This document shows positions 24,916 to 48,995 of a DNA stretch of 64,000 nt, in pieces; the first letter of the stretch is position 1; every line of letters begins with the position of its first letter. The position numbers and the translations under genes are program-made. The stretch lies in assembly GCF_003970925.1 (NCBI RefSeq), contig NZ_RWJF01000001.1, positions 2,722,501 to 2,786,500 of the forward strand, in the 5' to 3' direction. The notes below the pieces were generated by a model. The model ran no database searches. It was not told the origin of the DNA and saw nothing but the letters and a program-made list of their open reading frames with translations. Source of the stretch: Sphingomonas ginkgonis. GTDB lineage: Bacteria > Pseudomonadota > Alphaproteobacteria > Sphingomonadales > Sphingomonadaceae.

Positions 24916-24997
24916 CGTCATCCCCGCGAAAGCGGGGATCCAGCTTCCTTTTCCGCGTCAGTAGTTGAGCTGGATCCCCGCTTTCGCGGGGATGACG
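24916..24997. repeat. Dispersed palindromic repeat, inverted pair
   Basis: Two inverted copies of a unit beginning CGTCATCCCCGCG: left 24916-24946, right 24968-24997, separated by about 21 bases. Each copy contains its own hairpin (CCCCGC-GAAA-GCGGGG), and the two copies can also pair with each other. Same family as the copies at 29543, 29992, 46776 and 48483. It sits in the 362-base gap before the symporter gene; the rest of that gap shows nothing that I can identify. Confidence 0.9.
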
Positions 24998-29542: not shown

Positions 29543-29634
29543 AGCTGGATCCCCGCTTTCGCGGGGATGACGGCTGCTGGGTTGGAGCGGGCGTATCAGC
29601 CGTCATCCCCGCGCACGCGGGGATCCCGCTTCTT
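29543..29634. repeat. Dispersed palindromic repeat pair next to the GIY-YIG gene
   Basis: Two units of the CGTCATCCCCGCG family in inverted orientation (29543-29572 and 29601-29634). The second unit ends only two bases before the stop codon of the GIY-YIG nuclease gene. Each unit has its own hairpin. Confidence 0.88.
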
Positions 29635-29636
29635 GG

Positions 29637-29975
29637 TTACACCTGCATGAGGTCCCACAGGTCGCGCCAGTCCGGGTTGTTGCGCTCGATCGCCTCGATC
29701 TTCCACGCGCGCCGCCACTTCTTCATCGCCTTCTCCGCCCCGATCGCCTCGTCGATGGTGGGGAACTCCTCGGCATGGACGAGGCGGCTGCAGCGGTAGC
29801 GGCGGCAGAAGGCCGAGCCTCGGCCGCTGCGATGGGCGTGGATCCTGGCTTCGAGGTCGGCGGTGACGCCGATGTAGAGGGTGCCGCGGTAGCGATTGGC
29901 CATGATGTAGACCCAGCCCGACAGGTGAACCTCCCGCGTTCTCCCCCGAGCAACGGCGAATGCAGCCCGTTTCAC
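29637..29975 (-). CDS. GIY-YIG nuclease family protein
   Basis: 112-aa single-domain GIY-YIG nuclease. The signature is GWVYIMANRYRGTLYIGVTAD, given here as WVYIM (GIY position) and LYIGVT (YIG position), then the catalytic Arg in LEARIHAHRSG and Glu in FPTIDEAIGAEKAMKKWRR. The GTG start is needed to keep the first strand. It belongs to the small stand-alone type (UPF0213/YhbQ-like) with no known cellular role. It is bracketed on both sides by palindromic repeats, 2 bases from one and 16 from the other. Confidence 0.85.
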   Translation of the reverse strand: MKRAAFAVARGRTREVHLSGWVYIMANRYRGTLYIGVTADLEARIHAHRSGRGSAFCRRYRCSRLVHAEEFPTIDEAIGAEKAMKKWRRAWKIEAIERNNPDWRDLWDLMQV

Positions 29976-29991
29976 CCCGTCTCGTCAAGGG

Positions 29992-30351
29992 AGCTGGACC
30001 CCCGCTTTCGCGGGGGTGACGGTTGTCCGGACGATCGGGCAGCTTTCTGCCGTCATCCCCGCGCAAGCGGGGATCCCGCTTCTTCCCTTTGCCCGACGAA
30101 GGCAGCTGGACCCTCGCTTTCGCGGGGGTGACGCGACTGGGGTGGGGCGGGCATACCGGCCGTCATTCCCGCGCAAGCGGGGATCCCGCTTCTTCCTTTG
30201 CCCGACGCAGGCAGCTGGACCCGCGCTTCCGCAGGAGGTGACGCGACTGGGGTGGGGCGGGCATACCGGCCGTCATTCCCGCGCAAGCGGGGATCCCGCT
30301 TCTTCCTTTGCCCGACGAAGGCAGCTGGACCCCCGCTTTCGCGGGGGTGAC
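29992..30351. repeat. Cluster of palindromic repeats with a 110-bp tandem array
   Basis: Unit at 29992-30021, then from 30051 an array in which the same 110-bp segment recurs with near identity (ACGCGACTGGGGTGGGGCGG at 30131 and again at 30241). Each period holds one left unit (CGTCATTCCCGCGCAAGCGG) and one right unit (AGCTGGACC... CGCGGGGGTGAC). About 2.7 copies are present, ending with a complete right unit at 30322-30351. Mutations in one right unit (CGCTTCCGCAGGAGGTGAC) show decay. It fills the gap between the GIY-YIG gene and lnt; no gene is present. Confidence 0.88.
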
Positions 30352-46740: not shown

Positions 46741-46775
46741 CGATTGCTCCGTGAGCGGGTCCGATGACCAATGAC

Positions 46776-46857
46776 CGCCACCCTCGCGAACGCGAGGGTC
46801 CAGCTTCCTCGACGGCCGGCGAAAGGCAGCTGGATCCCCGCATTCGCGGGGATGACG
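46776..46857. repeat. Palindromic repeat pair at the 5' end of the GNAT gene
   Basis: Left unit 46776-46808 (CACCCTCGCGAACGCGAGGGTC core) and right unit 46828-46857 (CCCCGCATTCGCGGGG core), same family as at 24916 and 48483. It lies between the rbfA stop and the probable GNAT start. An in-frame ATG at 46764 would read through it and add about 36 residues. Confidence 0.85.
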
Positions 46858-46871
46858 AACTGGGGGCGGCG

Positions 46872-47384
46872 ATGGCTGGCGAGGGGTGCCGCGCCGAACC
46901 TTTCCGCGAGGAGTTTCGCGCGGCGCTCAAGGCGGCCTGCGCGGAGGATCGCGCGGTTTGGGCGTTCTACGCCAATGACTTCGGACCGGACGGGTTCGAC
47001 TCCAGCCTCGGCCCCTATCTCGCCAGGACCGACGCGCGGACCTTCGTCCTGTTCGACGGCGAGGAACTGGTCGGCATGTCGAGCTATCTCGGCATCGATC
47101 CCGCCCGGCAGGTGCTGGAGATCGGCGGGACCTACTACCGCCCCCGCTTTCGCGGCACCGGCTTCAACCGCCGTGCCAAGGCGATGATGCTGGAGCGCGC
47201 GTTCGACAGCGGCATCCGCCGGGTCGAGTTCCGCGTCGACCGCCGCAACGCGCGCAGCCAGGCGGCGATGGCGAAGCTCGGCGCAGTCCGCGAAGGCGTG
47301 CTTCGCGCCGACCGCATCACCTGGACCGGCCACGTCCGCGACACGGTGCTGTTCGCCATTCTCAAGGACGAGTGGCCGGTCTAG
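46872..47384 (+). CDS. GNAT family N-acetyltransferase
   Basis: 170-aa GNAT acetyltransferase of the RimJ/RimL-like type: the acetyl-CoA-binding block is YYRPRFRGTGFNRRAKAMML and the C-terminal motif is VEFRVDRRNARSQAAMAKLG then GVLRADRITWTGHVRDTVLF. Such proteins acetylate protein N-termini or small molecules; the target is unknown. I start at the ATG after the palindromic repeat (46872) because the upstream residues (HPREREGPAS, QLDPRIRGDDE) are translated repeat. If ATG 46764 is used in the cell, the protein carries that peptide as an N-terminal tail. Confidence 0.82.
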   Translation: MAGEGCRAEPFREEFRAALKAACAEDRAVWAFYANDFGPDGFDSSLGPYLARTDARTFVLFDGEELVGMSSYLGIDPARQVLEIGGTYYRPRFRGTGFNRRAKAMMLERAFDSGIRRVEFRVDRRNARSQAAMAKLGAVREGVLRADRITWTGHVRDTVLFAILKDEWPV

Positions 47385-48014: not shown

Positions 48015-48995
48015 ATGCTGAACGGCTGGATCATCCTCGACAAGCCGCTGGGCCTGGGGTCGACGCAGGCCGTGTCCGCGGTCAAGCGCGCGCTGCGCGA
48101 GGCCGGCGAGCCCCGGACCAAGGTCGGGCACGGCGGGACGCTCGACCCGCTCGCGACGGGCGTGCTGCCGGTGGCGCTGGGCGAGGCCACCAAGCTCGCC
48201 GGGCGGATGCTGGACGCGACGAAGGGGTATGATTTCACGGTTCGCTTCGGGGTGGAGACGGACACGCTCGACCTGGAGGGAAAAGAGGTCGCTGTTAGCG
48301 GCCATCGCCCGACCCTCGCCGAGATCGAAGCGTTGCTGCCTCGGTTCACCGGGCCGATCGAGCAGGTGCCGCCGGCCTATTCGGCGCTGAAGGTGGAGGG
48401 CAAGCGGGCCTATGATCTGGCGCGAGCGGGGGAGGAGGTGACGCTGGCGGCGCGGAAGGTGACCATCCACTCCCTAGTTATTCGTCACCCCCGCGAAAGC
48501 GGGGGTCCCGCTTCTTGTCCTGGGTCCGGAGGGAAGCTGGATCCCCGCTTTCGCGGGGATGATGGAAGGGGGCTGGGCGGCGATGGCGCAGTGCACGAAA
48601 TCACCCTCGCCGCCACCGTCTCCAAGGGCACCTACATCCGCAGCCTCGCCCGCGACATCGCGCGGGCGCTTGGCACCGTCGGGCACGTCACCATGCTGCG
48701 GCGGACGAAGGCCGGTCCGTTCACCCTCGGCCAAGCCATTTCGCTGGACTTTCTCAGCCAAGCCGCTAAGGCGCGCGACCTGACGAGGACGGTGCTCCCG
48801 CTTCAGGCGGGGCTGGACGACATCCCGGCCCTCCCCGTCGACCCCGACCAGGCAAAGCTGCTCCGACAGGGTCAGCGCTTGGCCGGTCTGCCCGTGAAAC
48901 CGGGCCTCTACCTTGCGACACTGGCCGAAACGCCCGTCGCGCTGGTCCAGGCCTCGGCCCTCGACCTCTGGGTCGTGCGCGGGTTCAACGTCTAG
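48015..48995 (+). CDS. truB: tRNA pseudouridine(55) synthase carrying an in-frame repeat insertion
   Basis: 326-aa enzyme making pseudouridine 55 in the T-loop of tRNAs. The catalytic Asp is in GHGGTLDPLATGVLP near residue 43; YSALKVEGKRAYDLAR, KGTYIRSLARDIARALG and the C-terminal PUA-like end are typical. Between KVTIHSL and VHEITLAATV sits an extra stretch of about 38 residues (RHPRESGGPAS ... [11 protein letters not shown]) that exactly matches the palindromic repeat 48483-48565. The frame is preserved. In known TruB structures this point is a surface loop before the KGTYIR strand, so the enzyme may remain active. Confidence 0.93.
   Translation: MLNGWIILDKPLGLGSTQAVSAVKRALREAGEPRTKVGHGGTLDPLATGVLPVALGEATKLAGRMLDATKGYDFTVRFGVETDTLDLEGKEVAVSGHRPTLAEIEALLPRFTGPIEQVPPAYSALKVEGKRAYDLARAGEEVTLAARKVTIHSLVIRHPRESGGPASCPGSGGKLDPRFRGDDGRGLGGDGAVHEITLAATVSKGTYIRSLARDIARALGTVGHVTMLRRTKAGPFTLGQAISLDFLSQAAKARDLTRTVLPLQAGLDDIPALPVDPDQAKLLRQGQRLAGLPVKPGLYLATLAETPVALVQASALDLWVVRGFNV
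48483..48565. repeat. Palindromic repeat inserted in frame inside truB
   Basis: Left unit CGTCACCCCCGCGAAAGCGG (start 48483) and right unit from AGCTGGATCCCCGC to GGGATGATGG (ending about 48565), same inverted-pair structure as the intergenic copy at 24916-24997. Read in the truB frame it yields RHPRESGGPAS and [11 protein letters not shown] without stops. With adjacent bases the insertion spans about 48477-48590, 114 bases or 38 codons. Confidence 0.92.

What the first reader, a model, noticed from the sequence alone, without database searches (positions are those of the whole stretch)
48477..48590. Palindromic repeat inserted in frame inside truB
The genomic repeat found between genes elsewhere (24916, 29543, 29992) is here inside a conserved tRNA-modification gene. 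It adds about 38 residues (RHPRESGGPAS ... [11 protein letters not shown]) between KVTIHSL and VHEITLAATV with no frame loss. The same repeat encodes open frames in both flanking orientations, which makes it tolerable inside genes. This parallels the Rickettsia palindromic elements that insert into proteins, but in a different lineage and repeat family.
Basis: partly seen in the sequence, partly recalled or inferred. Interest (0 to 1): 0.85.

Follow-up and report, generated by a model that had tools for sequence, protein, structure and literature searches.

The report
Repeat landing loop inside TruB enzyme
A short mobile DNA palindrome sits, without breaking the reading frame, inside one floppy loop of a tRNA-modifying enzyme, and related bacteria carry several unrelated palindromes in that same loop, which makes the loop look like a natural tolerated landing site for repeats.

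Summary
A CGTC-type REP dimer (48483-48564, 82 nt) lies in frame in truB (48015-48995). The genome holds 39 half-elements; a reversed-pattern control finds none. In-frame REPs, even in truB of two sphingomonads, were published in 2013 (PMC3733652), so this single insertion is a new member of a known kind.

What my searches did not find in print is its setting. The hairpin loop between strands 147-156 and 195-202 is a recurrent landing site. Of 115 parsed TruB loops from an even draw over the family, 27 hold a significant palindrome, of at least seven repeat types, against 0 of 345 windows elsewhere in truB. Insertions of 15 or more residues occur only there. Outside the order 76 of 79 loops have 9-12 residues. 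Four CGTC subfamilies use the same hydrophilic open frame in 40 of 41 left arms. AlphaFold leaves the insert disordered. A MurD loop is a second site in a biased sample. Best reading: insertion by unknown machinery, then survival in a tolerant loop; target preference is not excluded.

The parts
48015..48995 (+). truB, tRNA pseudouridine(55) synthase, 326 aa, carrying the insert
   Evidence: TIGR00431; TruB_N and TruB_C_2; Foldseek top match 1k8w_A
48477..48599 (+). 41-residue hairpin loop (commonly 9-10 residues in uninserted relatives)
   Evidence: pLDDT below 50 at residues 160-182, between strands 147-156 and 195-202
48483..48564 (+). CGTC-type REP dimer with the CGTC tags outside (HH type), read as [27 protein letters not shown]
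   Evidence: HH definition
48484..48512 (+). left half-element
   Evidence: 3 mismatches to the copy at 24917
48535..48563 (-). right half-element
   Evidence: 1 mismatch to the copy at 24917
24916..24997 (+). copy of the same dimer elsewhere in the window
   Evidence: 30-nt arms, 100% complementary
29543..30351 (.). cluster of 8 half-elements of the same family
46777..46856 (+). further dimer at the 5' end of a GNAT acetyltransferase ORF (46764-47384), same reading frame; may lie upstream of the true start

Best explanation
A non-autonomous CGTC-1 REP dimer inserted into truB at the tip of a surface beta-hairpin. The insertion survived because its length and phase kept the frame open and gave a hydrophilic, disordered loop that leaves the TruB fold intact (sequence and structure prediction; catalysis not tested). 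In this family the hairpin acts as a permissive landing site: different families of multicopy palindromes have entered it repeatedly, and insertions of such size are not seen elsewhere in TruB, presumably because they are purged (inferred). After insertion the palindrome decays by point mutation while the open frame stays (suggested by several genus members). How the element moved is unknown.
For: Multicopy repeat in the own genome. Loop palindromes in 27 of 115 sampled TruBs (loops under 18 aa were not tested and count as without); 0 of 345 control windows of 120 nt pass the same test. Insertions of at least 15 aa only at this loop, 67+1 of 117 rows; elsewhere the longest is 9 aa. At least seven repeat types by translated signature and, on a quick LG+G4 TruB tree without the loop, 21 changes of palindrome state and 31 of type. 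Four of the seven types were searched and are multicopy in genomes that hold them in TruB, though in G090 only two other places match its type. CGT is a codon in 40 of 41 left arms over four CGTC subfamilies, and in 17 of 18 once the commonest position is set aside. That left-arm frame is open in all four consensus subfamilies and hydrophilic (GRAVY -0.73 to -2.18, against +0.20 to +1.07 for the frame in which GTC is a codon). Disordered insert between confident strands in two models with different repeats. Open frames with weak palindromes in genus members, e.g. L039, L041-L043 (IR 4-9, no shuffles run on these). A non-repeat 36-aa extension uses the same loop in 35 of 115, so the loop tolerates length as such.
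Against: 23 of 41 CGTC-type left arms start exactly 6 nt after the strand-end Leu codon, across four subfamilies. This is tighter than tolerance alone predicts and could be target preference or shared descent. One arm (L136) uses the hydrophobic frame. The 44 loops come from all TruB loci fetched, among them the set, which is biased to inserts, and are not independent events. 11 of 115 loops of 19 or more aa show neither a significant palindrome nor the extension. Parsimony changes rest on a quick tree and cannot tell gain from loss. Di Nocera et al. say that apart from recB, REPs in genes of one functional category sit at different sites; whether that covers truB is unclear. No activity or expression data.
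Confidence: 0.75

Rival explanations
1. Target-site preference: the machinery that moves these palindromes recognises a DNA or single-strand feature at this codon, so the hotspot reflects targeting rather than tolerance.
For: Left ends pile up at offset 6 (23 of 41) over four CGTC subfamilies; pyrimidine at -1 in 26 of 29 two-armed loops.
Against: The codons before the site (often Ile/Val) bias those bases anyway; the 12 own-genome dimers listed show no clear shared target or duplication by eye; other CGTC copies start at 0-27 nt (one at 234), with one out-of-phase exception at 2; non-CGTC palindromes and a non-repeat extension use the loop too.
Confidence: 0.15
2. The insert is kept for a function, either as an mRNA hairpin acting on truB-rpsO-pnp or as a protein extension aiding RNA binding.
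For: Frequent occurrence in one loop.
Against: Sequence, length and repeat type differ between species; weak palindromes remain in open frames; 47 of 115 family members have 8-18-residue loops; the encoded peptide is predicted disordered.
Confidence: 0.08
3. One ancient insertion or domain inherited by the family and later lost or overwritten.
For: The 36-aa extension is shared by 35 of 115; decayed CGTC-like inserts in one part of the genus may be one event.
Against: Unrelated repeat types in the same loop; palindromes on top of the 36-aa extension in 5; the window's copy lies among short-loop relatives.
Confidence: 0.1

Closest known systems
CGTC-tagged REPs, CGTC-1 family (Di Nocera et al. 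2013, PMC3733652)
   Same: CGTC end, 8-bp stem beginning AT (ATCCCCGC/GCGGGGAT), 4-nt loop GAAA, CCA tail, HH dimers (tags outside), no dedicated transposase; that paper already lists REPs in truB of E. litoralis, S. alaskensis and S. maltophilia
   Different: In the parts read, same-site insertion is stated only for recB, and there is no loop, frame or multi-family analysis of truB; their Additional file 3 was not available
Rickettsia palindromic elements (RPE)
   Same: In-frame insertion of palindromes into conserved proteins; RPE-1 in R. conorii TruB as cited by Di Nocera; RPE-6 assigned there to CGTC-1
   Different: Other lineage; RPE-1 is another, longer family; whether it sits in the same TruB loop was not tested
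REPIN/RAYT systems
   Same: Short paired inverted REPs spread through the genome
   Different: No Y1-type transposase match in the window's genome or in 8 of 11 repeat-bearing relatives

Membership tests
CGTC-1 REP | Unpaired CGTC at one end, 8-bp stem starting AT, 4-nt loop, tail near CCA | tested here: met
   CGTC-ATCCCCGC-GAAA-GCGGGGAT-CCA in own-genome copies, compared by eye with the paper's text; the truB left arm has AC for AT and CCC for CCA, the right end reads GATG
CGTC-1 REP | Many copies per genome, predominantly HH dimers (tags outside) | tested here: met
   39 half-elements; in the window 5 neighbouring pairs have the tags outside and 3, all in the 29543-30190 cluster, inside; definition
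CGTC-1 REP | No associated transposase gene | tested here: met
   No Y1_Tnp match in the own genome; other transposase types not searched
Rickettsia palindromic elements | Palindrome inserted in frame in a conserved protein gene | tested here: met
Rickettsia palindromic elements | Sequence match to a named RPE family | not tested
   RPE sequences not fetched; the RPE-6 link to CGTC-1 is the paper's statement
REPIN/RAYT | GTAG tag and a RAYT gene in the genome | tested here: not met
   CGTC end; 0 PF01797 matches in own genome, the control rang in 5 of 14 genomes

The most novel reading that the evidence does not exclude
The TruB hairpin (with a MurD loop) is a natural safe harbour inside core enzymes of one bacterial family, partly targeted by a shared mobilising machinery that moves several unrelated palindromes to one codon position, so that repeats supply new protein loop sequence again and again.
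Probability: 0.2. Interest if true: 0.8.

Novelty: new variant of a known kind. Interest (0 to 1): 0.6.

Why it matters
It turns a scattered curiosity (palindromes inside proteins) into a replicated natural experiment: one loop, many repeat insertions of unrelated types, frame and position rules, and uninserted relatives as controls. That allows a direct test of whether selfish repeats seed new protein sequence by tolerance or by targeting. It also warns annotators that such loops ([26 protein letters not shown] and the like) are repeat-derived and not domains.

Tried and rejected
Rejected: chance palindrome (0 of 345 control windows; 0 reversed-pattern hits). Rejected: RAYT-driven spread as shown fact (no Y1_Tnp in own genome; in 3 of 11 relatives, none in G160, which had the most matches). 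Rejected: MurD site 2 as a second hotspot; of 30 MurD loci, 5 gave no readable segment and of the other 25 only the window genome's shows a REP by eye, where it takes the place of a stretch of similar length. MurD site 1 does recur (7 of 30), but those 30 are the best-scoring of 59 genomes and so biased towards inserts; L374 could not be parsed, L370 gave a weak score on a misplaced segment (1 of 40 shuffles), and segments under 45 aa were not tested.

Own-genome intragenic survey: 16 loci, about 12 separate places, were looked at; four places with 2-3 mismatches near 1.41, 1.83, 2.12 and 2.67 Mb were not fetched. In the 118-locus sample three gave no parsable loop and were dropped: L226 (contig end), L265 (aberrant motif, with a PLPFRGG-like insert) and L291 (TKGTYVR, short loop by eye). 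In the class sample L469 was dropped. The 80 named loci favour insert-bearing TruBs and were not used for frequencies, but they do enter the frame count. The split of the alignment is a weak sign (one match can also mean an unaligned second half), so loop lengths in the order's other families were taken from the coordinates.

Literature: one search listed 6 papers, of which I opened PMC3733652 and PMC10969869; searches found none; led to PMC3733652 on this subject (two other papers seen as listing only); two searches were seen as listings only.

Full report
Observation. truB (48015-48995) carries a 41-residue loop, 48477-48599, between IHSL and ITLAATV. In it sits an 82-nt dimer (48483-48564) of a repeat present 39 times as half-elements in the 3.2-Mb genome, with none in the reversed-pattern control. 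The dimer itself codes for 27 residues, and four of its six frames are open.

What the repeat is. The units read CGTC-ATCCCCGC-GAAA-GCGGGGAT-CCA and are often paired with the tags outside. This matches the CGTC-1 family of Di Nocera et al. 2013 (PMC3733652; I read the abstract, background, the opening of the results, the section on genome distribution and passages). That paper finds no transposase tied to CGTC repeats; here too no Y1-type transposase matches in the genome. It also states that truB carries REPs in E. litoralis, S. alaskensis and S. maltophilia and RPE-1 in R. conorii, and that, apart from recB, REPs in genes of one functional category sit at different sites. So the single insertion is not new in kind. 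The review PMC10969869 (passages only) describes RPEs as the known precedent.

The loop is a hotspot. In an even draw of 119 genomes of the family (85 genera), 118 had TruB and 115 loops could be parsed. Loop lengths were 8-9 aa in 21, 10-18 in 26, 19-30 in 5, 31-45 in 45 and over 45 in 18. 27 loops hold an inverted repeat (score 10 or more) that at most 1 of 60 dinucleotide shuffles reaches; 19 meet a stricter cut. Loops under 18 aa were not tested. The same test on 345 windows of 120 nt elsewhere in the same genes passes none. Across the protein, insertions of 15 aa or more fall at this loop only (67+1 of 117 rows); elsewhere the longest is 9 aa. 35 of the 115 carry a non-repeat 36-aa extension in the same loop by a motif rule (L223 looks like one more), and 5 of the 27 palindromes lie on top of it; 11 loops of 19 aa or more have neither, several with decayed-looking repeat signatures. 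In other families of the order, all 23 TruBs whose two halves were matched have loops of about 8-13 aa. Outside the order, one genome per family, 76 of 79 parsed loops are 9-12 aa and none exceeds 23.

Several repeat types. The loop palindromes fall into at least seven types by translated signature. Four are CGTC-tagged (CCCGCG, CCTGAA, CCGGA and CTGAGC stems, names mine); the others are longer palindromes read as GTGRGT/SSPARGGG..PPPRAGE, PLPFRGG..PNPSPEGEG and SSPARGRWR..LPLAGEE. Four of the seven were searched for. Besides the window's own type, GTGRGT gave 78, 93, 53 and 38 matches in four genomes that hold it in TruB and 22 in one that does not (G096). PLPFRGG gave 34, 81 and 82 in three that hold it, 22 in one that does not (G431), and 5 in G090, which holds it but has only two other places. 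The CCTGAA half-element gave 25, 35 and 19 in three that hold it and 61 in one that does not (G090), with 0 in reversed controls. Matches are counted on both strands, so a palindrome may count twice. On a quick TruB tree without the loop, palindrome state needs 21 changes and type 31. In the genus, 9 of 30 have long loops with 5 changes, and the window's row falls with ten short-loop rows (SH-aLRT 89).

Frame and position. 44 different CGTC-type loops were found among all TruB loci fetched (258, biased set included; arms sought with up to 7 mismatches). 41 have a recognisable left arm; in 40 the CGT is a codon. The exception is L136. 23 start 6 nt after the strand-end Leu; of the other 18, 17 are in the same phase. 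These counts are not independent events. That frame is open in all four consensus left arms and hydrophilic; the frame in which GTC is a codon is open but hydrophobic, and the remaining left-arm frame has a stop in three of the four. Position concentrates more than tolerance alone would predict; no target duplication is evident. This is the main unexplained point.

Structure. AlphaFold on 47 TruBs gives mean pLDDT 88, with residues 160-182 under 50 between confident strands 147-156 and 195-202. The fold matches E. coli TruB bound to RNA, 1k8w, and the sequence alignment breaks at the same place. A second model, Sphingomonas sp. Root241 TruB with a different repeat, gives the same picture, 163-185 under 50.

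Other hosts. In the window's genome MurD carries two repeat-derived stretches. MurD site 1 holds significant palindromes in 7 of 30 loci (a biased set). In relative G160, 53 copies or parts of one palindrome were found in the 36 stretches fetched, which cover the places listed in a cut-off table. I tested 20 spanning frames, covering 20 of the 53, with Pfam; frames with low third-position GC were left out. Three copies lie in frame with domain matches on both sides: TruB, methylmalonyl-CoA mutase between its two domains, and valyl-tRNA synthetase. Tolerated sites inside conserved genes thus look few per genome, and TruB is one of them repeatedly.

Mechanism. Shown by sequence: repeat identity, in-frame position, recurrence, frame bias. 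Predicted: disorder. Inferred: random or semi-random insertion, purging of harmful insertions, persistence in a tolerant loop, later decay. Decay is suggested by genus members with open frames but weak palindromes (L039, L041-L043). Not shown: translation of the insert, TruB activity, the mobilising enzyme.

Verdict. The finding is real, its class known, its context new as far as my searches show. The library held is open-access only, so prior notice elsewhere is possible.

Noticed in passing
L006:802-2184 (own-genome murD): MurD carries two repeat-derived stretches: a palindrome of about 35-40 residues from residue 49 and a CGTC-REP at 264-286 that takes the place of a variable stretch of similar length in relatives.
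   Followed up: partly
L284 (G102 truB): A 93-residue loop made of several repeats in a row, including two different CGTC subfamilies.
   Followed up: no
L265 (G463 truB): TruB with a PLPFRGG-like insert and an aberrant KGPKIRS in place of SKGTYIRS; possibly a damaged gene or an assembly fault.
   Followed up: no
L338 and L346 (G160): Same palindrome in frame in methylmalonyl-CoA mutase (between domains) and in valyl-tRNA synthetase.
   Followed up: partly
L209-L283, several loci: A conserved 36-residue non-repeat extension (..FATTxGRPDPYDPxAPLELAD.) in the same TruB loop in 35 of 115 sampled genomes; origin unknown.
   Followed up: partly
window 46764-47384: GNAT acetyltransferase ORF begins with a REP dimer in the same reading frame; the true start may be downstream.
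   Followed up: no
window 29543-30351: Eight half-elements in a tight cluster, some pairs with the CGTC tags inside.
   Followed up: no
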